DNA from: Candidatus Woesearchaeota archaeon
GTDB lineage: Archaea > Nanobdellota > Nanobdellia > Woesearchaeales > GW2011-AR9
Direction: 5' to 3'
NCBI GenBank assembly: GCA_018696595.1
Contig: JABHQW010000002.1
Location: forward strand, 1 to 64,000
Length of the DNA: 64,000 bases
Under the pieces are notes generated by a model that was not told the DNA's origin, did no database searches, and saw only the letters and a list, made by a program, of their open reading frames with translations. The translations under genes and the position numbers were made by a program. Positions 4,751-26,750 of the stretch are shown in pieces; position 1 is the first letter of the stretch; every line of letters starts with the position of its first letter.

Positions 4751-4904
4751 AGAATAAGATGAATGTAATGGGCCCACCCGGACTGATTTTAAAATAATCT
4801 GTCTCGAACCGGACAAGGTCACTTCACTTCGTTACGTTCGTTGCCCTCTCTCGTCCGGGAATCGCTTCTGAGAATAAGATGAAAATAGTGGGCCCACCCG
4901 GACT
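4751..4904. repeat. Direct repeat copying the tRNA-Val 3' end
   Basis: A 34-nt unit at 4751-4784 recurs at 4871-4904 with three mismatches, exactly 120 bp apart. The right copy contains the last bases of the tRNA-Val gene (acceptor strand and part of the T arm) plus 18 nt of downstream flank. The left copy is followed by a 20-nt insertion and then CGAACCGG, which continues the T-arm sequence, so it looks like a broken tRNA 3' fragment. Repeats of a tRNA 3' end are typical of integration sites, but no integrase lies nearby. Confidence 0.75.
4809..4858. other. GC-rich hairpin beside the tRNA fragment
   Basis: CCGGAC (4809-4814) pairs with GTCCGG (4853-4858), with further partial pairing of AAGG with CCCT inside. 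The loop contains CTTCGTTACGTTCGTTG. It lies between the two copies of the tRNA 3' end repeat and far exceeds the local GC content. It could be a structured RNA, a terminator-like fold, or the remnant of an inserted element. No open frame crosses it. Confidence 0.5.
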
Positions 4905-4980
4905 CGAACCGGGGATCAATGCCTCACTTATTCCTTGCGGAAATGTAAGGGCACTGTCATAGCCACTAGACCATAGGCCC
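4889..4980 (-). tRNA. tRNA-Val(UAC) with 19-nt intron
   Basis: The complement strand folds as a full tRNA. Acceptor GGGCCTA pairs with TGGGCCC (one G-T), the D arm has GTC/GAC, the anticodon stem is GTGCC/GGCAT, the variable loop is TGATC, and the T arm is CCCGG-TTCGAGT-CCGGG. The discriminator is A and CCA is not encoded. The anticodon loop is interrupted after position 37 by a 19-nt intron (4925-4943). The splice region forms a textbook bulge-helix-bulge: helix CTTA/TAAG with 3-nt bulges CAT and TGA, and a TTCC-GCAA-GGAA hairpin. Splicing gives the 7-nt loop CTTACAA and anticodon UAC. Confidence 0.95.
4925..4943 (-). other. tRNA-Val intron with canonical bulge-helix-bulge
   Basis: The 19-nt intron starts after tRNA position 37, the standard archaeal place. 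Cleavage between the second and third bases of each 3-nt bulge, as known for archaeal EndA, would remove TTTCC-GCAA-GGAA-TAAGTG and join CTTACA to AGGCAT. Both bulges and the 4-bp central helix are perfect, so a homodimeric or broad-specificity EndA should be enough. The endonuclease gene is not in this window. Confidence 0.9.
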
Positions 4981-5084: not shown

Positions 5085-8009
5085 ATGGGGATTAAAGATG
5101 TTTTAAAATTTAAAAGTACACTTTTTCTGCTTAACCAAGATTTTATTTCTGCTAGATTTGTTGTAAGAAGTACTCGGATGGAGAAAAGAACTGAAAAACG
5201 TCTAGAAGCCGAGATCTTAGAAGAAGGTGAAGTACAACGGTTAAGAACAGAGAACCAAAAAAGAATTTCTGATACTTCTCGTTTATTGGGTAAAGTTGAT
5301 GTTGCTGATGCTCATTCTTTAAAGGAAGGAATTGCTACATTACGTAAAACTTTCCAGTTAGAAAAGATGACTGTTACAGAATTAAAAAAGTATAGTAGAA
5401 ATTTACACAAACAAGTTAGACTGATTGCTAAAATTATTGAAAACCTTCATCAATTAGTGTTAAGAGAAGATTTAGAAGTTGTTCATGATACTCGTGCTCC
5501 ATTAAATGCGGTGGACCATTTTGCTCATCAACTTAAAAAAGTTGTTCCTAAATTATTACGTCAAAAATTATCTCCAGAAGTAGAAAAAAAAGTACGAGAA
5601 ATAGTTAAAGGTATAGGCGAAGAATTAGAAAAACTGGTTGGAGAAGTATTAAGTTTTACAAAAAACAATTTGTCTTTTTATCAAAGTAAAAGTACTAAGA
5701 GAACATTAGCTCAACATTTACGTGAACGTACCACCTTTAAAAGAAAAATCAATGGTAAAGTTCAATGGGTTCTAATTCAAATAAAGGATTTAGAAAACAG
5801 GTTAAGAAAAGAATTAAATTCTAAAGAAACTAAAAGTCTTCAACAAGCGTTACTTAACGAATTAGCATATTTTAGTAAACAATTTGAGGAATTGATTAAA
5901 TTTAGTATTTTAAGGGTACAAATTGCAGAATTTATGATTATTGAAGCAATGAAGAAAGAAAAAGAGTTGACTCATGAATTAATGGGAATAAAAGAAGAGG
6001 CTACAAAGTTTTTTACTAAATTGAATATGCAAAGAATGAAGTTGGTTGTCCGAGGTAAACAACAACATAAAAAAGAATGGTATCAAAGTCGTGCTTGGGC
6101 ATTCTCTGAACAAAAACAGGCTATTGATGCAACAGTTAAAGCATTAGACAAAAAAGTTAGTTTAGAAGAAAATCGCTTTGGTGTTACTTTAGAACTTACA
6201 CGAAGAAATTTAGTTGCTGAACTTAATACTGAATTAAAAAAGGAAGATAAGATTAGACTCCAAGAGGTTAAAGCTGCAAAACAAACTGCTGGTAATGTGG
6301 GTACTCTAATGCGACGTGGCACTCAAGTTTTAGTTGCTGGAATGTTAATGACCCTTGGTGCTAATGCTTTAAACAATGGTCTTCCCAGAATGTCTGTTCA
6401 GGCAGTAGAAGAAAAAGCGATTGAACAAACAATGAGTTCAGAAGATATTGAACGATTAAGAAGAACCCCTAAACTAGCAGCAGAGTTTGCTGAGAAAATT
6501 GGAACAATTATTGAGGATAAAAGTGTTCAAACAGTTGATGCAGTTGAGACATTAGCAGTTAAAGTTGCTAGAGGGATTAAAACTGAATTGGCCGAAGCAA
6601 AGAAACAAGAAGAAGCCGCTAAAAAGAAAGTAGTTGAAACCAAAAAGGAAGAAGCTAAGAAGGCTGAGAAAGTTAAAGTTGCTAGACCTAAGAAGAAAGA
6701 GGAGAAAAAGGAAAATGCTCGAAGAAAACTTGCTGGAGCAGGTAAAGGCCAAGGAAGTAGAGGGATCGACACTAATGTCCCAAAAACACCAATTGATAAA
6801 GAAGTTGGTTTTGCTAAACTTTTATTTAATGGGGCAGGATTTGAATTAGATCAAAACGGAAATACTTATTATTTTAAATTTACTCGCAAAAATGTTGCTA
6901 TTGATTTAGCAAGTTACACAGAACTGATTCAACTGAAAGCGGAAGCGCTTGAACACACTTCTTTCAGAAAACTTGAAATGACTGTACATGAAAACTTAAT
7001 TGTCAAGTCTTTATCTGAAAATGCTGTTCTTAAAGTTACAGTAGATAAACAAAGATTGACTTTTGAATGTTTTGATGTTATTTTAATTGATGGGCCAACA
7101 ACTTTAATTGTTAATGCTGGCAAAGATATTAAAGTTAAATCTACTGGTCGGCCAGATTTAGATTATGCTGGAGATGATTTAGTTAAAGAAGTTCTTTCAG
7201 TTAATCTTGCTGGAAAGAAAGTTGATCAAGTAACTTTGGTGGATGACAATTATTTCCCCGATGTTCCTATTATGGGTAAATACCTTGGCAAATCCTTTAT
7301 TACTGAAAAAGATTTCTTGGATGTTTTGAATAGTATGTTGAAATATCCTGTTTATTGGGGTGCCCCAGGGATTAATGATTCAGATCACTATAATATTGTT
7401 TGTAACGGACTGATGAGGAGTATGTTCTTAGCAATGTTAGGTAACCAATTTATTGTTCATGCTCAAAAGAATGGTTTAGGAAAACCAATTGATATGAGAA
7501 GAAATACTAAATGGAAAAAGTATTTTAGCAAAGTTGGGGTTACAGAAAATATTTTTAGTAAAAATAAACTAAAAAAGATTGTTGATGTTGATGGTAAGCT
7601 CTTAATTAAGAGTGGGCTAAATAAAAAACAAAAAAAGCAATCTAAAAGAGTTGGAAAATTAGAGTTTACTAAATTTGGTGAATATCTTAAGATTATTGGA
7701 GTAAAACCAATGCCTGGTATGGTTATTATGTTAGCTCATAAAGGAACTGGGGGAACGTTAAGACACGCCGTAATTATTGGGGAAGTTGACGGTTATAATA
7801 TTAAGAATGTTTATGCTGCTTCCTCTAAAGAATTTAAAAAAATTGGTGGGGAACGCGGAAGTGGGATGGCTCAAGTCAAGAAACGAACACTTGATATTTA
7901 TGATGGGTATTACGTTGAACAAGTTATTGATAGTTATACTTATCTTGCTAAAATGGGACTTGGTCAACCGCAATTAGCTTATATTGATTCTGTGAATAAG
8001 GTGAACTAA
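5085..8009 (+). CDS. Coiled-coil membrane protein with NlpC/P60-like C-terminal domain
   Basis: The 974-residue protein begins at the ATG at 5085; an upstream in-frame ATG at 4998 would add a poorly fitting N-terminus beside the tRNA promoter. Residues 1-400 are charged and strongly helical. A double Arg (410-411) then leads into one hydrophobic segment (about 414-430), which predicts a cytoplasmic N-terminus and an external C-terminus. A Lys/Glu/Ala-rich linker follows (about 503-558). The C-terminal 250 residues look like a papain-fold NlpC/P60 domain: YWGAPG, Cys773 in NIVCNGLM, and His894 in RHAVIIGEVDG. The stop is 1 nt before the next ATG. The peptidase call is by motif only. Confidence 0.6.
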   Translation: MGIKDVLKFKSTLFLLNQDFISARFVVRSTRMEKRTEKRLEAEILEEGEVQRLRTENQKRISDTSRLLGKVDVADAHSLKEGIATLRKTFQLEKMTVTELKKYSRNLHKQVRLIAKIIENLHQLVLREDLEVVHDTRAPLNAVDHFAHQLKKVVPKLLRQKLSPEVEKKVREIVKGIGEELEKLVGEVLSFTKNNLSFYQSKSTKRTLAQHLRERTTFKRKINGKVQWVLIQIKDLENRLRKELNSKETKSLQQALLNELAYFSKQFEELIKFSILRVQIAEFMIIEAMKKEKELTHELMGIKEEATKFFTKLNMQRMKLVVRGKQQHKKEWYQSRAWAFSEQKQAIDATVKALDKKVSLEENRFGVTLELTRRNLVAELNTELKKEDKIRLQEVKAAKQTAGNVGTLMRRGTQVLVAGMLMTLGANALNNGLPRMSVQAVEEKAIEQTMSSEDIERLRRTPKLAAEFAEKIGTIIEDKSVQTVDAVETLAVKVARGIKTELAEAKKQEEAAKKKVVETKKEEAKKAEKVKVARPKKKEEKKENARRKLAGAGKGQGSRGIDTNVPKTPIDKEVGFAKLLFNGAGFELDQNGNTYYFKFTRKNVAIDLASYTELIQLKAEALEHTSFRKLEMTVHENLIVKSLSENAVLKVTVDKQRLTFECFDVILIDGPTTLIVNAGKDIKVKSTGRPDLDYAGDDLVKEVLSVNLAGKKVDQVTLVDDNYFPDVPIMGKYLGKSFITEKDFLDVLNSMLKYPVYWGAPGINDSDHYNIVCNGLMRSMFLAMLGNQFIVHAQKNGLGKPIDMRRNTKWKKYFSKVGVTENIFSKNKLKKIVDVDGKLLIKSGLNKKQKKQSKRVGKLEFTKFGEYLKIIGVKPMPGMVIMLAHKGTGGTLRHAVIIGEVDGYNIKNVYAASSKEFKKIGGERGSGMAQVKKRTLDIYDGYYVEQVIDSYTYLAKMGLGQPQLAYIDSVNKVN

Positions 8010-8010
8010 A

Positions 8011-9591
8011 ATGATTACTATCGGTTCGCGAAAAGAACTTGCTGGCATTAGTGATGAATTCAAGAACGTTTGGATTACTTTTATTCGAAAATTTAAGCGA
8101 ACTTTTCCTGGAAGAGTAATTCGGAAAAAGATATCTTCTGAAGATTTTTCTAAGAACTTGGATCAACTTCTTGAGTATTTGAAGATTCTTTGGGGTGAAG
8201 TAGTTACAAAGACTAAGGTATTGACGACAAAGGAAGAGTATAATCAAGCAAAGAAAGATTTTATTGGACTTGCAGAAGAAATTGAAGAACTTATTGATAT
8301 TCTCACTGAGATTAAAAAGAAATCCTCACAATTTGGTAGTGTGGTTACTTATAAACAAATTAATATTTATCTTGAACTAGCAACAAAAAACATTACTGAA
8401 ATTAAAGCATTAATTACTGTCGCTGTTGCGTCTTATCTAAGAGTGGGGAGAAGAAGGTTTCTTAAAACAATAGTGAAGGGCGGTGCCGTTGCGGTTGTTG
8501 CATCAATTGGGTTGGGCCATCTTAGTTTAAATTATATGAACCTTTTGTCTAGGCTCGCCAAGAATTTACCTGTTCTTAAAGAAAATGGGCTAGCAATTTT
8601 AATTAGTTATGATATTCATCCAAATTGGTATGAAGAATTAGCATTCAAGTTTAAAGATGAATTTTTACCTGCCTATATTGCTAGAGTTGAGCTCGCTTTT
8701 GGACAAAGAGCTAATGTTGTTAATGGGTATAGGACAGATTTAGAGAAGGTTTCTAAAGATGGTCTGATTAGTGGTGCTTTAAAGAGAGGAGCTACAAGAG
8801 ACGATTTGATTAAAGTGATTAAAGATCCCCTTATTCAGAATATTGTTGTTTTTGGCCATGGGACCTGGACTTCTTGGGTGGCTACTGGAGATGATAATGT
8901 TTGGGCAAATGATTTGATAGGGGAATCTTTGCCGAGAAAGAAAGGCAAATTATTAAAACATACTTGCGGCGTTTATCGCAAGAAATGGGTTGGTAAAGGA
9001 ATAAAATATTCTAAAAAAGATTGGGGCGGAGGAGTTTTAGAAGCGTTAAAAGTAATAAATGGGAGGATGAAAGATCATTTTGAAATTCATGTTTCATTTC
9101 GTGATGCTTACTTTTCTTATCGTGAAAATAATGGGGATCTTGGTGATGGGGAAATTTATGGGTTTATTGATTTTAAGATTAAAGGTAAAGGTAGATTTGA
9201 TTTTTTTGGATTTGGAAAAACTCTTTTTGAATCTAAACTTAGTTCTTTAGATGATGTTCCAGAAATAAGTGATCCCTTGTTATTTAACTTAAAAGAAATT
9301 ATTCAACATACAGATGATCCCAGAGCGATTGAAGACTTAAAGAATTTTCTTCATGAACTAAGATTTTATCTTAAATCTAATTGTTTGAAATTGGATATAG
9401 ATAAAACTCCCCTTTTTGGGACATCGGTTTACAAAGAAAACCGCATTTATGGGTGGGATCGTATAACTTCCCCCATAGACTTTTTGTTTGATCCTTTTGG
9501 AAACAAGCAAGAAGATTATATTTATACTATGGCTGCGGAAGAGAAAGCTAAAGAGAAAGCCGAGAAATCTGCAGAAGAGGCTACTTCTTAA
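8011..9591 (+). CDS. Membrane protein with caspase/CHAT-like His-Cys domain
   Basis: The 526-residue product shares its layout with the gene before it: a helical N-terminus (1-140), then an arginine-flanked hydrophobic segment starting RRRFLK (147-152) and running to about 175, then an outside domain. RRRFLK resembles a twin-arginine motif but sits internally. The C-terminal domain has NIVVFGHGTW (His283) and, 36 residues on, LKHTCGV (Cys319). A hydrophobic strand ending in His-Gly, followed by a strand ending in Cys, is the dyad pattern of caspase-fold peptidases. It ends in an acidic/Ala/Lys tail. Function unproven; co-transcription with the preceding gene is likely (1-nt gap). Confidence 0.5.
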   Translation: MITIGSRKELAGISDEFKNVWITFIRKFKRTFPGRVIRKKISSEDFSKNLDQLLEYLKILWGEVVTKTKVLTTKEEYNQAKKDFIGLAEEIEELIDILTEIKKKSSQFGSVVTYKQINIYLELATKNITEIKALITVAVASYLRVGRRRFLKTIVKGGAVAVVASIGLGHLSLNYMNLLSRLAKNLPVLKENGLAILISYDIHPNWYEELAFKFKDEFLPAYIARVELAFGQRANVVNGYRTDLEKVSKDGLISGALKRGATRDDLIKVIKDPLIQNIVVFGHGTWTSWVATGDDNVWANDLIGESLPRKKGKLLKHTCGVYRKKWVGKGIKYSKKDWGGGVLEALKVINGRMKDHFEIHVSFRDAYFSYRENNGDLGDGEIYGFIDFKIKGKGRFDFFGFGKTLFESKLSSLDDVPEISDPLLFNLKEIIQHTDDPRAIEDLKNFLHELRFYLKSNCLKLDIDKTPLFGTSVYKENRIYGWDRITSPIDFLFDPFGNKQEDYIYTMAAEEKAKEKAEKSAEEATS

Positions 9592-10910
9592 TGTTTAATT
9601 CTGCCGAAAACTATTTTTTGTGTTTGGTAACTAACACTAGTTAATTTACTGAGTCCCAATCCTAAATTATCATAGTGTAATATTGGGTCGTGGCCATTAA
9701 ATATTCTTTCAGCATCTTCTTTTTCTTTTCTTTGAGTAGCAGATAAATCATTTACATCTTCTAACAGAACAACAACATGCCAATAACGATTACTATTTTG
9801 GTCAGCAAAGAAAACTAAATCTCCTTGTTGGACATCTTGGTCATATTTTAATTGGGCAGTGTTTCCTTCTAAATCTGTAATCTCTCCATTTTGGTGTAAT
9901 AGGTATTCATCAGAATATTCTGTTTGTTGTCTTAATCCATCCGCATTTGTGTATTTGTACTTTCTATTCAAATGTCTTGCTGCTCCGACAATTAAATCTG
10001 CACAATCAAATCCTAAATATAATTCTGTTTGGTGAGATCTTTGTGAGTGAGAATGATTTAAACTAGCAGAACCATAAATCCCTGGAACGTTGAAGTATGA
10101 AGTTGTCCAACCCAGAAATGTTTCATCTAACAGATAACAGATTCTTAACACATCACTTTTGATTCCACCCCTTTTTACATTATTGTGGTTGGGGGTGTTC
10201 CATGATTTATCATTTATTCTCAGTTCTAAACTAAAGCGCATTGTTCCTAACTCAAAATTATGGTTTTGCTTAGTGGGTTTAGCATCTGCAAGAATTCGTT
10301 GTAATCCTTTAGTTTTTTCAACTTGTGAGCTGGCGTAATTAATCTTATCTATCCCTAACCATTTTCTAGTATCAGGGTCAGAATTCTCATAAGGAAAATG
10401 AGAATCAATTAATGGTTCAACTTTAGACCATTGCATTATAACGTGTTCTAATTTTGCTCTTGTTTCTTTATTGGGATTAGTTCTAATGTTTTTTCCTTTT
10501 ATTTTTATTTCTGGTGCACTAGAATAATATTCAACTTCTTTACCATTTTTTACCATAACTACAGGATAAAGAAAAATTTCTTCTTTCCCGAATATTGCAT
10601 TCTTTGGTTTATGTGAGGGGGTTTCTTTTTCTACACCAGAAAGAACGAAAACTTGATCAACTTTCTCTTCTAATTCTGAAAGGGCTTCTTTTTCTTCTTT
10701 CATTTTTTCTTTGACGCTAAATTCTTCGAATTTTTCTATTCTTTTTTCTATTCTTCCTATTATTCCTTCTGTATAATGTCCTATTTCTTGAATCTTGGAA
10801 CGCGGAGTAGGAATAGTGAAGCCAATATCTATTGGAGAACCTAATGTTAATCCTAAATAAGTAGCCAAAACCACAAGTAAATTCGGGGGAGTAATAAACA
10901 TTATATTCAT
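9588..10910 (-). CDS. Secreted NlpC/P60-like protein
   Basis: The 440-residue protein starts with a hydrophobic signal or anchor (about 9-24), followed by a Lys/Glu coiled coil (45-90). A C-terminal domain has NlpC/P60 features: Cys303 in GFDCADLIVGA, QGDLVFFAD, and His378 in RYWHVVVLLED, with a possible third residue at His412. NlpC/P60 enzymes cleave amide bonds in peptides or cell-wall crosslinks, but archaea lack murein, so a self substrate is unlikely. It converges with the caspase-like gene and overlaps it by 4 nt. That puts three surface-directed putative hydrolases side by side. Confidence 0.65.
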   Translation of the reverse strand: MNIMFITPPNLLVVLATYLGLTLGSPIDIGFTIPTPRSKIQEIGHYTEGIIGRIEKRIEKFEEFSVKEKMKEEKEALSELEEKVDQVFVLSGVEKETPSHKPKNAIFGKEEIFLYPVVMVKNGKEVEYYSSAPEIKIKGKNIRTNPNKETRAKLEHVIMQWSKVEPLIDSHFPYENSDPDTRKWLGIDKINYASSQVEKTKGLQRILADAKPTKQNHNFELGTMRFSLELRINDKSWNTPNHNNVKRGGIKSDVLRICYLLDETFLGWTTSYFNVPGIYGSASLNHSHSQRSHQTELYLGFDCADLIVGAARHLNRKYKYTNADGLRQQTEYSDEYLLHQNGEITDLEGNTAQLKYDQDVQQGDLVFFADQNSNRYWHVVVLLEDVNDLSATQRKEKEDAERIFNGHDPILHYDNLGLGLSKLTSVSYQTQKIVFGRIKH

Positions 10911-11013: not shown

Positions 11014-12231
11014 ATGGACATTTATCAACCCGCTGAGGATTCGTATTTATTACAAAAACATGTTAAGAAATATGCTTTTGGTAGGGTTTTAGATCTTGGA
11101 ACGGGGTCTGGAATACAAGCTTTAACTGCTATTAAGAATAAAGAAGTTCGAGAAGTTGTTGCTGTTGATGTCAATAAAAATGCAATTGAAGAATTGAACA
11201 ATAAAGTTAAAAGTGAGAAAATAAGAAAAGTAAAAGTTATTTTTAGTCATTTGTTCTCAAATGTAAGAAATAAATTTGACACAATTATTTTTAATCCCCC
11301 TTATTTACCACAAGATAAAGTTGGTAAAGAGATTATTGAAGATGCTGCCCTTTATGGTGGGAAGCATGGTTGGGAGTTATCTGAATTTTTTTTCTCTGAA
11401 GTTAGTAATTATTTAGTTGCTAACGGGAAAATATTATTTTTGTTTTCTTCTTTAACTAACAAAAAGAAAATTGAAGAAATTATCTTTGAGAACTTGTTAG
11501 AATTTAAAGAGTTGATTCAGGAGAAACAACCAATGTTTGAAACATTATATGTTTATTTGATTGAGAAAAGTAAATTGTTACGTGAATTAGAAAGAAAGAA
11601 CATTTCTTCGATTAAATATTTAACTCACGGGAAGCGGGGAAATATCTTTATTGGTATTCTTGATAAAAGTAAGTTTATTAAATCTCATTTTGCTCGAAAA
11701 AATGAAGTTAAAGTAGGAATCAAAGTTAAAAGAGAAGAAAGTTTAGCTGTTGAAAGAATGAGAAATGAAGCTAATTGGTTGAAAGTTTTAAATCGTAAGG
11801 GGATTGGTCCAAAATTTGTTTTTTCTGGGAAAGATTATTTAGTATATGAATTTGTTGAAGGGGAATTTGTGTTAGACTGGATTGTAGATCGAAATGGAAA
11901 AGAGGTTATAGGGATGTTAACTAAAGTTTTAGAACAATGTTTTGTTATGGATAAATTGATGGTTAACAAAGAAGAAATGCATCGCCCTCACAAACATATT
12001 ATTGTTGATAGATTTAATGAAGTAACTATGCTTGATTTTGAAAGATGTAGCAAAACCGAAAAACCTAAGAATGTTACTCAGTTTGTAGAATTCATTTGTC
12101 GGTTGAAAGAAGAGTTGTCTCGGAAAAATATTAATGTTGATGTTGAGCAGTTAAGGAAATTATCTCGGATTTATAAAAAAGAAATTAGTTTAGGTAATTT
12201 TAATTTAATAAAAAGTAGTATTTCCTTCTAA
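11014..12231 (+). CDS. Fusion: HemK/Mtq2-type methyltransferase + Ser/Thr kinase-like domain
   Basis: Residues 1-185 form a class I SAM methyltransferase: motif I VLDLGTGSG (25-33), acidic AVDVN, and the catalytic NPPY tetrad (94-97) typical of HemK/PrmC/Mtq2 enzymes that methylate the Gln of release-factor GGQ. Residues 200-400 resemble the archaeal predicted Ser/Thr kinase family (COG2112): a possible glycine loop (GKRGNIFIG), Lys in GIKVKREES (237-239), GIGPKFVFSGKDYLVYEF, and DFERC (341-345) at the DFG place. The fusion could couple modification of a translation factor with phosphorylation, but that is inference. The 3' end overlaps the converging helicase gene by 27 nt. Confidence 0.72.
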   Translation: MDIYQPAEDSYLLQKHVKKYAFGRVLDLGTGSGIQALTAIKNKEVREVVAVDVNKNAIEELNNKVKSEKIRKVKVIFSHLFSNVRNKFDTIIFNPPYLPQDKVGKEIIEDAALYGGKHGWELSEFFFSEVSNYLVANGKILFLFSSLTNKKKIEEIIFENLLEFKELIQEKQPMFETLYVYLIEKSKLLRELERKNISSIKYLTHGKRGNIFIGILDKSKFIKSHFARKNEVKVGIKVKREESLAVERMRNEANWLKVLNRKGIGPKFVFSGKDYLVYEFVEGEFVLDWIVDRNGKEVIGMLTKVLEQCFVMDKLMVNKEEMHRPHKHIIVDRFNEVTMLDFERCSKTEKPKNVTQFVEFICRLKEELSRKNINVDVEQLRKLSRIYKKEISLGNFNLIKSSISF

Positions 12232-12852
12232 ATTAATTCCTTGTTTAAGTTCTACTGGGCGCCAATTGTCCTGTACTAACTTTGCTCCTAACCAGGCCGC
12301 AAGTTCCTCTGGGTTACCGATCGTCGCTGAGAGGCCAATTATTTGTGGTTTGATTAATTGTTTCAGTAGTGTGATGATGATTTCTAAAGTTGGTCCTCTA
12401 CTAGGGTCGTTCAAAAGATGAATCTCGTCAATTACTACAGTTTTAACTTCATTAATCCAAGAAATTCTGTGTCTAAGTAAAGAATCTAATTTCTCTGTTG
12501 TTAATATTAAGAGATCATAATTTGCTAAGTAAGAGGATTCGGAATCAATATCTCCTGTTGATTGGACAACTTTATAATTTGTGTTTTCTAATAGGTTCTG
12601 GTACTCTTTGAATTTTTCATTAGCTAATGCTTTTAATGGAACAAGATAAATGGCTTTCCCTTCTTTTAGTACGTTAGTGATGGCCATTGTTGCTACTAAG
12701 GTTTTCCCACTAGCGGTTGGGGCACAGATTAATAATGATTCTTCTTTTAGAAGGTTTGCTTTAACAGCTTTTTCTTGTATTGGTGTTAAAGTTGGAAATT
12801 TAGTATAATGTTCTTTAAAGTAATTTGGTAAATGCAACTCTTTTATTAGCAT
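12205..12852 (-). CDS. Hel308-like helicase, first RecA domain only
   Basis: The 215-residue product is the N-terminal part of a Ski2/Hel308-type DNA helicase: a Q-motif-like LTPIQEKAV, Walker A APTASGKT, VPLKALANEK, TGD, LTTEKLDSLLR, Walker B VVIDEIHLL, and motif III LSATIGNPEELAAWLGA. It stops right after the RPVELKQG segment that in Hel308 leads into the second RecA domain. Full Hel308 proteins are about 700 residues, so RecA2, winged-helix and ratchet domains are missing. The sequence beyond the stop is occupied by the converging fusion gene. It may be a remnant or one half of a split helicase. Confidence 0.75.
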   Translation of the reverse strand: MLIKELHLPNYFKEHYTKFPTLTPIQEKAVKANLLKEESLLICAPTASGKTLVATMAITNVLKEGKAIYLVPLKALANEKFKEYQNLLENTNYKVVQSTGDIDSESSYLANYDLLILTTEKLDSLLRHRISWINEVKTVVIDEIHLLNDPSRGPTLEIIITLLKQLIKPQIIGLSATIGNPEELAAWLGAKLVQDNWRPVELKQGINLEGNTTFY

Positions 12853-19505: not shown

Positions 19506-22500
19506 ATGAAAAATAACAAAATTAAAATTAAAAGAGGGGTACTGAGTTTGAAAAAAAGAGGGTCACTGACCTTATTAGGAGTTATTGTAGTGTTGGTTCT
19601 AGGTATTTCTGCATCTTTATTTTTCGCTAACAATTCTGATAATCAATTAACTGGTGCTTTGATTGGTGTTCAAACTATAAAAGGAGAATGTAATATCTCC
19701 ATTACTGAAGACGTAATTAACATTGGTCATGATTATGAATGTACTAATACAGACGGTTTTCATATTGATGCTGACAATGTTACTTTTGATTGTCAGAACC
19801 ATTATATCAAATGTGTAGGTTCTGGATGTAATAACCATACTGGTCCAGTTACACGAGATTTTGCAGGAATTCTTTTAACTAATCGATCTGGTGTTACTAT
19901 CCAAAATTGTTATCTCTATAACTTTAGTGATGGGATTCGTTTAGAAACTAGATCTACTCGTAACATTCTGCAAAATAATTACTTTTACAATAACACTGAT
20001 GGGGTTGACATTTACAATAGTACTGCTAATAATCTTACTGGTAATAGAATTGAACAAATTGGCTATTGTGGTGTAAATATTTCTCACATGAATAACAATA
20101 TTGTGAATGGAACGACTTATAATCGAATCTGGAACAATAAAATTCATAATAATACTGTTCATCATAATATCTCTGATAATTGGCAAGGAAGTAAAGAGGC
20201 TTGTAATGATGCAGTTAGTTTTAACTTTTGGTATTTGGACAAGAATTGTGCTTCTGGTGTTCAGAATATTTTAGTTGCAGAAACCGGGGGCGGAGGAGAA
20301 TGCCTGGGTGGAAATTGGTGGTTGTCTTACTCTGGTGGTGATTCTACTGGTGATGGTTTAGGAGATACTAATGTGCCTTACAAGGGAACAGGGATTACAA
20401 TAACTGGTTCAGGCACTGCTGCGGGAGATAAACATCCATTAATTGATGTTTGTTCTTCTTTACCGATTGTCATCTCAGAGAATACAACTTGCGGTCCTAA
20501 ACAATTAAACAGTTCTACTGGTGAAGGGGTTGCAATAACAAAAGAGAACAAATACTATAATTGTAATGGCACTATATTAAATGGTAATGCTTCTAGCCAA
20601 ACCCCCGCATATCAAGATGATATGAGAGGAATAGAAATCGTTGGAGTTGATGATGTTATCGTAAGAAATTGTGAAATCTATAACTTTACTTATGGGGTTT
20701 ACATTCAAAATGCTCAGAACGTTACTTTAATTAATTTAACGATCAGAGATAATAACAACGTCGGAATTTATATTGGGTCTTTAGCAACGGGAGTAACCGT
20801 TAGGGATAGTAAGATTCAAAATACTAAAGACACTTATTTACAAGAGTATGGTATTTGGTTGAAAAGTGCTAAACCTGGGTCTATAAATAATCCTGGAAAT
20901 AACATTTCAAACAATGTCATCTCTAATCACAGCGTTGGAATTCATTTGAGTGATAATTCTGATTACAATACTATTGAACACAATACTATTTACAATAACA
21001 CCAACGGCATTTTAATAAATGATTCTCTTGCTGTCTCTATTTACAATAATACTATTTTTAATAATAGTGATTCTGGGGTTAAGTTTATTTCTTCTTCAAC
21101 ATTCCAATATTTTGGTAATGAAACTCTGAAGAACGATATTTATGGGAATAATTATGGGATTCATTCAAATGGGACCACCTCTGAAAGTTATTTAACCGGG
21201 ACTATACATAATAATAATTACGGAATTTACTTGTATAACTCTAACTTGAACATTCGGTACGCTTTGTTACGAAACAATACTAATGCTAGTATTTTGATTA
21301 ACAATTCAAATGATGTTGAAATCGATGCTACAAATATTTCAGGAAGTCAGAGTAGTAGTCCACAAGGAGGCTATGGTCTTAGGGTTTTTAATTCTTTAAG
21401 ATTAAAAGTTTCTATAAGTGATCAAGTTGTGGGAGATAGTTATCTTAGAAATAATACTTATGGGGTTTATTTGAAAAACGTAAGTTATGCCCTCTTAGGA
21501 TCTACTTTTAACTCTTTAATATTTTTTAATAATACTAACAACATAGTGTCTTACAACTCCTCTTATAATAATTATTCCAACTTGAAGATCTACAATGGTT
21601 CTATTGGGATTAATTTAACTAAATCTAATTATAGTAGAATTACGGATAGCAATATATCACATTTTTCAGGTTACAATTTGTTCTTTAATAACTCGTATAG
21701 TAATGTTATTTATAACAACATTATTGATAATTCTACTGGTGGCGTAGATGCTTTTGTTAACACTATTAATAACACCTGGAACTTAACATATGATTGTAGC
21801 GGTTCTAATAGAATTGGTGGAAAATGTAAAGGTGGAAATTATTGGAGTGAGTATTCAGGTGTAGATTTAGATAATGATGGGATTGGCAACAATTTGGTGC
21901 CTTACAATAGTTCTGGAAGAATTAATGGGTCTGGTGATTACTTACCTTTAACAAACAACTTGGCAGGGTGTGGGAATATTTCTCGTTCAGTAACTTTAGT
22001 GCAAAACATTTCTATTAATGGTAGTTGTTTCATAATTCAAGCAAGTAATATTTATATTAATTTTAATGGCTACTTTCTAATTGGAAATGGTTCTGGGATT
22101 GCAATTAACATTTCTGATAAGTCCGGGGTAAAAATTTTAAATGCTAATATTGATAACTTTGCAACTGCAATTTATGCTGACCCCTCAGATTATTTGAACT
22201 TTACAAATAATACTATCATTAATAGTAATCTTGGAATTTTACTATTAAAAGTAAATCATAGCCATGTTTTTGAAAATAAGATTAATGGTTCTACTGTGGG
22301 AATTAACTTAACTAACTCTCATAATAATACAGTCTCTAGGAATAATCTTACGTTGAATACTCTCGGTTTAGATTTAACTTCAGGAGCAGCTTCAAATAAA
22401 ATTTATGATAACTTTTTTAATAATACTGCTAATGCTCAAGATGACGGGAGTACAAATACTTGGAATTTAACTTATAACTGTACTGCTGGTAATGGTGCCA

Positions 22501-25500
22501 ATAATGGAAGTATTATCAATAGAAACTGTTCTGGAGGTAATTTCTGGAGTGATTATTTAGGTAAAGATTCTGGCGGTGGATCTTATCCTTATAATGTTTC
22601 TGATAATGGAATTGGTGATACTAATATCCCTTATATAACGGGGATTACTGGCGGGGATTACTTGCCGTTAACTTCAGATAATGGCACATTAAACCTAAGT
22701 TGTCAAAGTATTACTGCTTCAACCACTCTTAGTGGTAATGTGGATTGTCTTACAGGTGATGGAATTACGATTGCCGCTAATGATGTTACTTTAGATTGTA
22801 ATGGGAAAAATATTTCTGGGGGCGGAACCGGAGCTGGTATCTCTGTAAGTGGGCGAAATAACATTATAATTAAAAATTGTAACATTACTAACTTTTACTA
22901 CGGGATTAAATTATTAAATACCAACAATGTTGACATTATCGAAGGTAATGATTTAAGATTAAATGATTTTTATGGGATTTATTTGTATCAAGCTAATGGC
23001 ACTGAAATAAAAGATAATGATATTGTTAATGACAATAATGGGGTTTATCAAATTAGTTCTAGCGCTACGCGGATAATTAATAATACTATCAATTTGCAAA
23101 AAAAGTTTTATGGTGTTTATTCTTTTAATAGTGAGAGGGGTGTTATCGAGAATAATACTTTCTGGAACAATTATCACAGTATTTATTTAGTTAATTCTTC
23201 TTCCACTAATGTAACTGGGAACAATGTTACTTTGAGTGATGTGTATAGTTTGTTTGTACATAAAGGAACAACTGATTCATATTTCCAAAGCAATAATCTA
23301 ACTTTGGGACAAGAAGCGATAAGGATTAAAGAGAACAGTAATAATAATTATTTCATAAACAATCAAATCTTTGATCATTTGAATTATGGTGTATTTTCTA
23401 CAGGTTCTAACAATAACGACTTTACAAACAACACCTTTGTGAACAATAGCAGAAATATCTATTTAGTAAATTCAGTTAATAGTTTGATAAAGAACAACAC
23501 TATTGGGGATGGTATTATAGGTATACAAGCATTGAACAATTCAGATAATATTAATTTGACTGGTAATATTATTAATGCTACTAATTTGCCTAGTTTAGAA
23601 ATTAATAATAGTGCTAATATTGTGTTAGCAAATAACACCATAATCAATAACACTTACCTTTACAATGTTGATGGTGCAAGAATAGAACAAAATAATTCTA
23701 TCAATGATTTGTTAAATATTACTGCTTCAGACAATTTGACAATCGTTGATAATAGTTTACAAGTTCTATCAGTTCATAATACAAATGGTTCTACTATTGC
23801 TAGAAATATTATCACTTCTAAATTAGTTGCAGTAACTTTTTCTTCAGGAAACGTTTCTGCTAATGGCATTAAGAATACCAATGTTACAGCATTTGTATTA
23901 GAAACAGTTACAAATTCAACCATACATGATAATGATGTTCAAAATAATACTCAAGCAATCCTACTATTTGGTTCTTCAACTGGGAATGGTATATTTAATA
24001 ATTGGTTAAAGGATAATGATGTTGGTTTAAACTTTAGTGACTCAACCAGTAATACTGTTTACAATAATTATTTTGAGAATACAAATAATGTTGAAGATGA
24101 TAGTGACAATACCTGGTTTAATACTTATGCTTGTCAAGAACCTAACATTGTTGGCGGACCTTGTCAAGGAGGAAACTTTTATTCTGATTACTATGGATTA
24201 GACAATGGGCTGGGTGGTTTAGAAGAACAAGGCGATGGTATTGGTGACCAACCTTCTACTTATACCATTAGTGGAAGTACGACTGATAATTATCCATTGG
24301 TGCTTTATGTTGCTAGGCAATATTATGATATGAGTTCTGGTGCATTCCCTGATTATAGTGCTTTATTTGATGCGTATGGAAATGTTTCTGGGCTGTTAAC
24401 AAATGCAGAGGTTGTTCCTAATGCTGTTCAAACAATTAATTATAATGACACCACTACAAAAAAAGCGTACTTAGAATTAATTGGACAATTTAATCAGTCT
24501 GATGTCCATGCAGAAACTTTAAAATTAAATCATAATCCAAATAAAACAAGTGTAAATATTACTGGTGTTACTGGAATTGCAGCAACATACACCGCTTACC
24601 TTTATCACAATAACCAACTGGACTCTGGTGTTTATGTTTGTGAAGATGCTTATAATTTATCTTTGGATCAAACTTGTAGTAACGTTGTACAACTTAAATC
24701 TGGTGGAGTAACTGATAATTATAATTTAAGTCATAGTGGGGATCATTATTTAGTTAGTGGTTTATCAAACCAAAGTATAACTGTTGGAATTAATAAAGCA
24801 TTTAGTTGTGGGGGTAATATTACCCATGATATTATTTTTACTGTAGATGTTAATTGTACTGGGGATGCTTTTGTAATAAAGGCAAATAATGTTACCATTG
24901 ACCTAAATGGATATTCATTAATTGGAAGTGGTTCTGGTGTTGGGATTAATATTAGCAGTTACAATTATACTGTTATTAAGGACGGAGACATTATCAACTT
25001 TACTACTGCTATTTATGCTGATCCTGCAAAAGGAATTAACATTACTAACACAAATATTTCTAGTAACAATAGAGGGGTATATTTCTTCTTAATTAATGAT
25101 AGTTTTGTTGTTTCTAACTGGATTTATAATAATTCCGTTGGAATAACTCTGAATCGTTCATACGGGAATAAAGTTTATGACAACTTTTTCAACAATACAA
25201 TTAATGCTATAGATAACGGAAGTAATACTTGGAACATCTCTTTAACCAGCGGGACAAACATTCTTGGTGGTTCATATCTTGGTGGAAACTTTTGGCACAA
25301 TTATACTGGTTGGGATACTGATTTAAATGGGATTGGTGATACTTTGAATGAAAGTATTCGTAGTTCTGCTGGAACAATTAATGGTACTGATCAATTACCT
25401 TTAACTGCTGTCGGAAAAATTGCTTGTGGTAATGTTAATAAGAATATCACTCTGGGGATGAACGTGTCCGCTTCAGGAATATGTTTTAACTTTACAAATC

Positions 25501-26750
25501 AGGTGAGTTTAGTCTTTGACTGTGCTGGTTATTCAATCATTGGTTCTGCTAGTGGTATTGGGTTAAATCTTACTGACACGAATTTGTCAATAATTAGAAA
25601 TTGTACTATTAAAAATTTCAGCATTGGGATCTTTACAAATCGTTCACATAATAATACTTTATTTAGAAATACAATTATTAATAATAGTTTAGGAATAAAC
25701 TTGACTGGCTCAGGGAACAATACCATTTATAATAATCTTTTCAACAACACTAATAATGCTGATGATAATCTTTTGAATATTTGGAACATTTCCAAAACGA
25801 CAGGTAGCAATATTGCTGGTGGGTCCTATTTAGCAGGTAATTTTTGGAGTAACTATAATGGGAGTGATACGGACAGCGATAAAATAGGAAATACTGATTT
25901 ACCTTACAACAATTCTGGAAACATTACTGGTGGTGGAGATTATTTGCCTTTGACAGATTATACTAGTACGTCAAGTACCCCAGAGACTCCTGCAGATACA
26001 ACCACTTCTCCTGGCGGTGGAGGTGGCGGTGGAAGCTATACTAAGAAAACCACTACAGCAAAAGATAATTGTACGCAGAATTGGCAATGTGGTGACTGGA
26101 GCGAATGTATTGGCGGGGAACAGTTTAGAAATTGTAATGATGTCAATCTATGTGAAAGCAAAGAGGATGCTGGAACAATAAGTCAGTTGTTTAAGAAAAC
26201 TAAACCTTCGGAATCAAGAAGTTGTGAAATGTCAATTGTGCCAGAAGTACAAGAACCTTCCTTACCAGAAGAACCTAGTTTGATCTCAGAATTTATTCCT
26301 GATAGTACAACTGGAAAAGCAATTACTTTATCTTCACTTGCTTTATTGATGGCGGTTGGTGGGATCTTTGTTTACTGGCAGTTTGCTTATACCCCTACTC
26401 GATTAAGAAGAAGACTGAAAAAGTTACGTCCTTTATTAGGGGAAGAGACCGCAGATATTTTGAAGTCTGGTTACTTGGGGGTTTATAATTTATATCTTAA
26501 ACTATCTGAGAAGCATAAGCAGAACTTTTATAGTAAAGTCACTAAAGTTCGTGAAACAATTGAGGGGCAACTTAAAGCAGAGAAGAAGATTGAAGAATTG
26601 TTAGAAGATGCACATAAAGGTGGTATTAAAGAACAGAAAGAGCGCTATTTGGGAATTTATCATGAATATCGTAAATTGCCGGTGAAGGTAAAACACAAAT
26701 ACTATCAGCATGTTGTACATTTACGGGAACGGTTAGAAAGAGGGAATTGA
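19506..26750 (+). CDS. Giant surface protein: NosD-like beta-helix modules, TSP1-like motif, membrane anchor
   Basis: The 2414-residue protein has an N-terminal membrane segment (about 20-41) followed by QLTGALIG. Most of the length is parallel beta-helix of the NosD/CASH type. Six modules each end in a GGN(F/W/Y)W-S-x-Y-x-G-x-D...GIGDT-like box and a DYLPLT tail. N-x-S/T sequons are very frequent, suggesting heavy N-glycosylation. Near the C-terminus come a Gly stretch, a thrombospondin-1-like CGDWSECIGGEQFRNC motif, TTGKAIT, a second membrane segment, and a cytoplasmic tail of about 115 residues. That tail contains two copies of a YLGxYxxYxKLxxKxKxxxY repeat. Likely an adhesin or carbohydrate-binding surface protein. 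Confidence 0.85.
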   Translation: MKNNKIKIKRGVLSLKKRGSLTLLGVIVVLVLGISASLFFANNSDNQLTGALIGVQTIKGECNISITEDVINIGHDYECTNTDGFHIDADNVTFDCQNHYIKCVGSGCNNHTGPVTRDFAGILLTNRSGVTIQNCYLYNFSDGIRLETRSTRNILQNNYFYNNTDGVDIYNSTANNLTGNRIEQIGYCGVNISHMNNNIVNGTTYNRIWNNKIHNNTVHHNISDNWQGSKEACNDAVSFNFWYLDKNCASGVQNILVAETGGGGECLGGNWWLSYSGGDSTGDGLGDTNVPYKGTGITITGSGTAAGDKHPLIDVCSSLPIVISENTTCGPKQLNSSTGEGVAITKENKYYNCNGTILNGNASSQTPAYQDDMRGIEIVGVDDVIVRNCEIYNFTYGVYIQNAQNVTLINLTIRDNNNVGIYIGSLATGVTVRDSKIQNTKDTYLQEYGIWLKSAKPGSINNPGNNISNNVISNHSVGIHLSDNSDYNTIEHNTIYNNTNGILINDSLAVSIYNNTIFNNSDSGVKFISSSTFQYFGNETLKNDIYGNNYGIHSNGTTSESYLTGTIHNNNYGIYLYNSNLNIRYALLRNNTNASILINNSNDVEIDATNISGSQSSSPQGGYGLRVFNSLRLKVSISDQVVGDSYLRNNTYGVYLKNVSYALLGSTFNSLIFFNNTNNIVSYNSSYNNYSNLKIYNGSIGINLTKSNYSRITDSNISHFSGYNLFFNNSYSNVIYNNIIDNSTGGVDAFVNTINNTWNLTYDCSGSNRIGGKCKGGNYWSEYSGVDLDNDGIGNNLVPYNSSGRINGSGDYLPLTNNLAGCGNISRSVTLVQNISINGSCFIIQASNIYINFNGYFLIGNGSGIAINISDKSGVKILNANIDNFATAIYADPSDYLNFTNNTIINSNLGILLLKVNHSHVFENKINGSTVGINLTNSHNNTVSRNNLTLNTLGLDLTSGAASNKIYDNFFNNTANAQDDGSTNTWNLTYNCTAGNGANNGSIINRNCSGGNFWSDYLGKDSGGGSYPYNVSDNGIGDTNIPYITGITGGDYLPLTSDNGTLNLSCQSITASTTLSGNVDCLTGDGITIAANDVTLDCNGKNISGGGTGAGISVSGRNNIIIKNCNITNFYYGIKLLNTNNVDIIEGNDLRLNDFYGIYLYQANGTEIKDNDIVNDNNGVYQISSSATRIINNTINLQKKFYGVYSFNSERGVIENNTFWNNYHSIYLVNSSSTNVTGNNVTLSDVYSLFVHKGTTDSYFQSNNLTLGQEAIRIKENSNNNYFINNQIFDHLNYGVFSTGSNNNDFTNNTFVNNSRNIYLVNSVNSLIKNNTIGDGIIGIQALNNSDNINLTGNIINATNLPSLEINNSANIVLANNTIINNTYLYNVDGARIEQNNSINDLLNITASDNLTIVDNSLQVLSVHNTNGSTIARNIITSKLVAVTFSSGNVSANGIKNTNVTAFVLETVTNSTIHDNDVQNNTQAILLFGSSTGNGIFNNWLKDNDVGLNFSDSTSNTVYNNYFENTNNVEDDSDNTWFNTYACQEPNIVGGPCQGGNFYSDYYGLDNGLGGLEEQGDGIGDQPSTYTISGSTTDNYPLVLYVARQYYDMSSGAFPDYSALFDAYGNVSGLLTNAEVVPNAVQTINYNDTTTKKAYLELIGQFNQSDVHAETLKLNHNPNKTSVNITGVTGIAATYTAYLYHNNQLDSGVYVCEDAYNLSLDQTCSNVVQLKSGGVTDNYNLSHSGDHYLVSGLSNQSITVGINKAFSCGGNITHDIIFTVDVNCTGDAFVIKANNVTIDLNGYSLIGSGSGVGINISSYNYTVIKDGDIINFTTAIYADPAKGINITNTNISSNNRGVYFFLINDSFVVSNWIYNNSVGITLNRSYGNKVYDNFFNNTINAIDNGSNTWNISLTSGTNILGGSYLGGNFWHNYTGWDTDLNGIGDTLNESIRSSAGTINGTDQLPLTAVGKIACGNVNKNITLGMNVSASGICFNFTNQVSLVFDCAGYSIIGSASGIGLNLTDTNLSIIRNCTIKNFSIGIFTNRSHNNTLFRNTIINNSLGINLTGSGNNTIYNNLFNNTNNADDNLLNIWNISKTTGSNIAGGSYLAGNFWSNYNGSDTDSDKIGNTDLPYNNSGNITGGGDYLPLTDYTSTSSTPETPADTTTSPGGGGGGGSYTKKTTTAKDNCTQNWQCGDWSECIGGEQFRNCNDVNLCESKEDAGTISQLFKKTKPSESRSCEMSIVPEVQEPSLPEEPSLISEFIPDSTTGKAITLSSLALLMAVGGIFVYWQFAYTPTRLRRRLKKLRPLLGEETADILKSGYLGVYNLYLKLSEKHKQNFYSKVTKVRETIEGQLKAEKKIEELLEDAHKGGIKEQKERYLGIYHEYRKLPVKVKHKYYQHVVHLRERLERGN

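What the first reader, a model, noticed from the sequence alone, without database searches (positions are those of the whole stretch)
5085..10910. Three linked surface-type putative hydrolases: two NlpC/P60-like and one caspase-like
A 974-residue and a 526-residue gene, 1 nt apart, share one architecture: long cytoplasmic helical part, arginine-flanked membrane segment, then an outside enzyme-like domain (Cys773/His894; His283/Cys319). A converging gene encodes a secreted coiled-coil NlpC/P60-like protein (Cys303/His378). An archaeon without murein has no obvious self substrate, so action on a host, a prey or its own protein surface is plausible. I know of no described system with this composition.
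Basis: partly seen in the sequence, partly recalled or inferred. Interest (0 to 1): 0.75.

Follow-up and report, generated by a model that had tools for sequence, protein, structure and literature searches.

The report
Archaeal surface cysteine-hydrolase trio, chance neighbours
A tiny uncultured archaeon carries three neighbouring genes for likely secreted or membrane-held cut-with-cysteine enzymes; one belongs to an unnamed caspase-like family that recurs across its archaeal phylum, but the three do not travel together, so they are probably not one machine.

Summary
The three genes are real and at the stated coordinates, in a Woesearchaeota-type archaeon (1.19 Mb, 97% complete). Gene C (9588-10910, -) is a secreted NlpC/P60-family enzyme: an HMM of 12 independent NlpC/P60 proteins of the order finds it at E=7e-7, and Cys303/His378 are invariant in 6 relatives. 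Gene B (8011-9591, +) carries a caspase-like domain of an unnamed family found in 36 of 336 genomes of the phylum; among 34 members the only columns above 76% conserved are G-H-G and C (His 32/34, Cys 33/33). Predicted strands and helices follow the caspase/haemoglobinase order, with His after strand 3 and Cys after strand 4. Solved-structure searches were not decisive. Gene A (5085-8009, +) has a helical N-terminal module that in relatives carries other C-terminal domains (YkuD in one); its own NlpC/P60 reading rests on motifs only (about 1% of shuffles do as well). The 'system' idea fails: A, B and C are never adjacent elsewhere and do not co-occur beyond chance. Gene C's relatives instead sit beside a different conserved two-gene cassette (6/6 loci). 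Net: chance linkage, but a new caspase-like, probably surface-exposed family worth a bench test.

The parts
5085..8009 (+). Gene A, 974 aa. Residues 1-408 helical module with D135-x-R137-x-P139-L140 invariant in 4 sequences; weak hydrophobic segment about 412-432 after RR; K/E-rich linker about 504-560; C-terminal region about 730-974 with PVYWG, C773-N-G, PGMVIML and RH894AVIIG.
8011..9591 (+). Gene B, 526 aa. Residues 1-146 helical; GRRRFLK 146-152; membrane segment about 150-171; caspase-like domain about 190-330 with G-H283-G and H-T-C319-G; conserved C-terminal tail.
9588..10910 (-). Gene C, 440 aa. N-terminal hydrophobic signal-like segment, window-specific coiled-coil part, family-specific middle domain, NlpC/P60 domain with FDC303AD and WH378VVVL.

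Best explanation
Three unrelated, probably extracytoplasmic cysteine hydrolases lie side by side by chance in one Woesearchaeota genome; A and B may be cotranscribed. C is a Sec-type secreted NlpC/P60 hydrolase, most likely cutting peptide or amide bonds of bacterial cell-wall peptidoglycan (family membership shown by sequence; export and substrate inferred). B is a membrane-anchored cysteine peptidase of caspase-like (clan CD-like) design: a cytoplasmic helical part, one membrane segment, and an outside domain in which His283 would activate Cys319 to cleave a protein (dyad conservation shown; topology, activity and substrate inferred). A is a membrane-tethered protein whose conserved inner helical module carries interchangeable outer domains, here perhaps an NlpC/P60-like hydrolase, in a relative an L,D-transpeptidase-like YkuD domain (module swap shown; membrane tether and function inferred). 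They are not parts of one conserved machine.
For: C: HMM of 12 NlpC/P60 proteins from the order hits only C on the 102-kb contig (E=7.3e-7), hhalign E=2e-5, Pfam NLPC_P60 in 4 of 7 family members, best 1.8e-4, PHROG 329 minor tail protein over the same stretch, 5.8e-5. B: G-H-G and C are the four most conserved columns of 34 sequences (0.94-0.97; next 0.76); His-Cys spacing 32-52, mostly 34-37; predicted order b1-a-b2-a-b3(His)-short b-a-b4(Cys), the order given for the caspase/haemoglobinase fold in PMC4357240; two members with His changed to Tyr or Gln; homologous by profile to a second unnamed caspase-like family (score 48.5 against 17.7 for the best shuffled control). A: module in 4 genomes with different C-termini. 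No linkage. Archaeal peptidoglycan hydrolases that kill bacteria are known, and homologues are prominent in Nanoarchaeota (PMC12352652).
Against: No significant match of B to any solved structure or Pfam family; model confidence modest (core pLDDT 70-86, mean 59). Flank charges of B's relatives are mixed (14 N-in, 6 N-out, 6 ties). A's NlpC/P60 reading is near chance. Sampling is one genome per species, so a linked set in close strains could be missed; absence from draft genomes is weak evidence.
Confidence: 0.6

Rival explanations
1. A real but very young three-gene antagonism or attachment island: A and B as tethered ectoenzymes and C as secreted partner, acting together on a bacterial or archaeal host surface.
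For: 1-nt gap between A and B and convergent C; all three are predicted extracytoplasmic cysteine hydrolases; in relatives C is also convergent with another operon whose large secreted protein bears C...PGDV..GHAIG motifs.
Against: Never repeated in 49 family genomes or in 27 other B-family loci; no profile link between A's C-terminus and that large protein.
Confidence: 0.15
2. B's domain is not an enzyme but a binding or structural Rossmann-like domain; the G-H-G and C residues bind metal or serve structure.
For: Structure searches return a mix of Rossmann-like folds at Z 4-5; no Pfam clan CD hit; one member each with His changed to Tyr and Gln.
Against: The dyad is the most conserved feature and sits at the strand ends where clan CD has it; pseudo-forms are known in orthocaspases too (PMC6426788, abstract).
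Confidence: 0.2
3. The hydrolases act on the archaeon's own surface: maturation of its S-layer or adhesins (B) and remodelling of own surface peptides (A, C), not on other cells.
For: B is predicted to be tethered, which suits processing of own envelope proteins; no host is known. Inference only.
Against: NlpC/P60 substrates known from bacteria are murein peptides (own knowledge); patchy distribution (C in 7 of 49) does not suit a housekeeping role.
Confidence: 0.25

Closest known systems
NlpC/P60 endopeptidases (Pfam PF00877)
   Same: Gene C: DC-[S/A]-x motif, GDxVFF block, HVxxL block, order and spacing; secreted.
   Different: Below Pfam's cut-off in this copy; family-specific middle domain; archaeal host without murein.
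Clan CD cysteine peptidases (caspases, metacaspases/orthocaspases, CHAT, C25, C11)
   Same: Gene B: His-Gly after strand 3, Cys-Gly after strand 4, predicted CHF strand/helix order, rare forms lacking the His.
   Different: No detectable sequence match to any Pfam or PDB clan CD member; internal membrane segment after a cytoplasmic helical part.
Archaeal peptidoglycan hydrolases (PMC12352652) and Woesearchaeota murein transglycosylases (PMC9723730, PMC8204110)
   Same: Same lineage and likely same kind of target for C.
   Different: Those reports describe modular PG hydrolases and GH23 transglycosylases; 'NlpC' and 'P60' do not occur in the main text of PMC12352652.
YkuD L,D-transpeptidases (PF03734)
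   Same: C-terminal domain of L018, which shares gene A's N-terminal module.
   Different: Gene A itself has no YkuD domain.

Membership tests
NlpC/P60 (gene C) | Profile similarity to the family | tested here: met
   order-specific HMM E=7.3e-7; hhalign E=2e-5; Pfam 16.7 of 23 bits for C itself, best member 1.8e-4
NlpC/P60 (gene C) | Catalytic Cys and His invariant | tested here: met
   C303, H378 invariant in 7 sequences
NlpC/P60 (gene C) | Cleavage of murein peptides | not testable with these tools
   needs purified protein
NlpC/P60 (gene A) | Profile similarity to the family | tested here: inconclusive
   hhalign 17.3 against shuffles up to 22.8; block score 17.5, 11 of 1000 shuffles as high
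NlpC/P60 (gene A) | Conserved Cys/His in relatives | tested here: inconclusive
   no homologue of the C-terminal region found in 287 genomes, so nothing to compare
Clan CD peptidases (gene B) | His then Cys dyad, each following a hydrophobic strand | tested here: met
   32/34 His, 33/33 Cys, top conserved columns; spacing mostly 34-37
Clan CD peptidases (gene B) | Caspase/haemoglobinase fold | tested here: inconclusive
   right order of elements in two models, but Foldseek E>0.3 and VIA Z 4-5 with CHAT (8tl0, 7zoq) and caspases mixed with other Rossmann folds
Clan CD peptidases (gene B) | Sequence similarity to a known clan CD family | tested here: inconclusive
   no Pfam, NCBIfam or PADLOC hit; CHAT E=0.17 for one relative
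Clan CD peptidases (gene B) | Peptidase activity, P1 specificity | not testable with these tools
   needs assay
Tat substrates (gene B) | Twin-arginine motif and TatC in the genome | tested here: not met
   R147, R148, F150 invariant in 5 long homologues, but TatC in 0 of 49 family genomes, control positive in 11 of 14

The most novel reading that the evidence does not exclude
Gene B founds a phylum-wide archaeal family of membrane-anchored caspase-like ectopeptidases, and gene A a family of tethered surface enzymes with swappable murein-acting domains (NlpC/P60-like, YkuD, others) on a common inner helical module: together a modular surface arsenal of episymbiotic archaea.
Probability: 0.3. 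Interest if true: 0.7.

Novelty: new variant of a known kind. Interest (0 to 1): 0.45.

Why it matters
Most DPANN archaea cannot be grown, and how they act on the cells they live on is open. A conserved, unnamed caspase-like family likely exposed on their surface, and a membrane module that carries different enzyme domains, give concrete proteins to express and test. If B is an ectopeptidase it would be an unusual place for a caspase-like enzyme; if C cuts murein it adds to the known archaeal weapons against bacteria.

Tried and rejected
Search of IMG/VR viral contigs for A, B and C: no relatives, so no viral origin shown. Plasmid and phage tblastn: nothing significant. Tat export of B: rejected, no TatC. 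HisKA-like reading of A's module (Pfam E 0.025 to 0.003, 18 of 26.9 bits): rejected as function; the would-be phospho-His is Tyr, Phe or Tyr in the three relatives although D-x-R-x-P-L is invariant. CHAT family in the order: 0 of 287. Link of A's C-terminus to the large secreted protein beside C's relatives: no profile support. Caspases and CHAT appear in the structure lists but other folds score equally, so no fold claim is made from them.

Full report
What is there. The window is contig C5:1-64000 of a 1.19-Mb, 97% complete genome; named relatives of gene B are Candidatus Woesearchaeota and unclassified archaea. Three long open frames match the finding: A 5085-8009 (+, 974 aa from ATG), B 8011-9591 (+, 526 aa), C 9588-10910 (-, 440 aa). 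A and B are 1 nt apart; B and C converge. All named residues are in place.

Gene C. Seven proteins of the same family (window plus six genomes, 23-25% identity to the window copy) align over their length, with D302, C303, D305, G363, D364 and H378 invariant. An HMM built from 12 independent NlpC/P60 proteins of the order picks out C, and only C, on the 102-kb contig (E=7.3e-7); hhalign gives E=2e-5; Pfam NLPC_P60 matches four of seven members, best 1.8e-4, though the window copy itself is below the cut-off. The N-terminus is a hydrophobic signal-like segment, also visible in the relatives. NlpC/P60 domains occur in 47 of 287 genomes of the order, 32 above the Pfam cut-off, so the domain is not rare here.

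Gene B. Single-sequence search found relatives in 8 of 49 family genomes, profile search 16 of 287 in the order and 36 of 336 in the phylum. Most are 190-235 aa: an N-terminal membrane segment plus the domain. Across 34 members the four most conserved columns are G-H-G and C (0.94-0.97, next 0.76); His is kept in 32 (Tyr and Gln in the others), Cys in all 33 that reach it. His-Cys spacing is 32-52, mostly 34-37. A compact relative (L039) was modelled with 9 alignment rows: mean pLDDT 59, core 70-86, elements b1-helix-b2-helix-b3-His91-short strand-helices-b4-Cys130. PMC4357240 defines the caspase/haemoglobinase core as four strands with three helices and the dyad at the ends of strands 3 and 4, with short strands between strand 3 and helix 3; the order agrees. 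Structure searches are not decisive: the SAVED-CHAT protease 8tl0 was first for one model (Z 4.9) and several caspases were listed, but unrelated Rossmann-like folds score the same. No Pfam, NCBIfam, PADLOC or PDB sequence match. A second, apparently cytosolic family (8 sequences, IITxPxxD...NGHG...SC...GCFIGY) is related by profile even after removing the shared member: score 46.8-48.5 against at most 17.7 for column-shuffled controls. I therefore call B caspase-like with fair confidence; clan CD membership is unproven.

Topology of B. Long homologues carry (S/T/G)RRxFL before the membrane segment; R147, R148 and F150 are invariant in five. This looks like a Tat motif, but TatC is absent from all 49 family genomes with the control search positive in 11 of 14 genomes. 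The flank charges favour N-inside in 14, N-outside in 6, tie in 6, so an outside domain is likely, not shown.

Gene A. Only about the first 400 residues have relatives: L018, L041, L042. Invariant residues include D135, R137, P139, L140. The C-termini differ: L018 has a YkuD L,D-transpeptidase domain (E=1.5e-4, just below cut-off, with SHGCMHIHP), L041 another unknown domain, L042 is cut by the contig end. So the inner module carries swappable outer domains. A's own C-terminus shows PVYWG, C773NG, PGMVIML, RH894AVIIG in NlpC/P60 order, but profile comparison is at shuffle level and a block model reaches 17.5 against 35.0 for C, with 11 of 1000 shuffles as high. Undecided.

Linkage. In 49 genomes B-type domains are in 8, C in 7, A's module in 2; B and C share the own genome and G045 (different contigs), about what chance gives. 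In 27 other B-family loci neither A nor C nor any NlpC/P60 gene is nearby. C's relatives are instead always (6/6) convergent with a two-gene cassette: a KGQ(V/I)TVFII-anchored protein and a large secreted protein, four of six of which show C...PGDV(I/L)L..GHAIG motifs (motif level only). That cassette is not on the window's contig. The 'one system' reading is thus not supported.

Known background. Peptidoglycan hydrolase homologues occur in about 5% of archaeal genomes, prominently in Nanoarchaeota, and some kill bacteria (PMC12352652); Woesearchaeota murein transglycosylases and 'vampiristic' genes are reported (PMC9723730, PMC8204110). A 2012 survey found caspase homologues in only five archaea, all Euryarchaeota (PMC3501461). 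No held paper contains both 'NlpC' and 'Woesearchaeota', which does not prove absence.

Verdict. Observation partly confirmed; interpretation partly supported; the interest lies in gene B's family and gene A's swappable module rather than in the trio.

Noticed in passing
L106-L111 (relatives of gene C): All six gene C relatives are convergent with a conserved two-gene cassette (KGQ(V/I)TVFII membrane-anchored protein, then a 790-1368 aa secreted protein); three also have a small secreted 159-200 aa protein between. No Pfam match.
   Followed up: partly
L136-L139, just upstream of the cytosolic caspase-like gene: All four cytosolic caspase-like genes examined have a conserved 78-108 aa gene immediately upstream.
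   Followed up: no
window 8446-8466 and long homologues of gene B: Tat-like (S/T/G)RRxFL motif conserved although no TatC was found in the family genomes.
   Followed up: partly
L018 1309-3381: A protein of the same archaeal family with gene A's inner module and a YkuD L,D-transpeptidase domain.
   Followed up: partly
window 4888-4980 (-): tRNA gene of 93 nt with an unresolved four-base anticodon call (Rfam tRNA 53 bits); possibly an intron or long arm.
   Followed up: no
window 12205-12852 (-): 215-aa DEAD-box protein matching only the first 222 residues of a 955-aa helicase in G041.
   Followed up: no
window 58321 to beyond 64000 (+): Open frame of about 3420 codons running off the window end (contig 58321-68580).
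   Followed up: no
window 19506-26750 (+): 2414-aa protein with NosD/beta-helix repeats, a likely surface adhesin.
   Followed up: no
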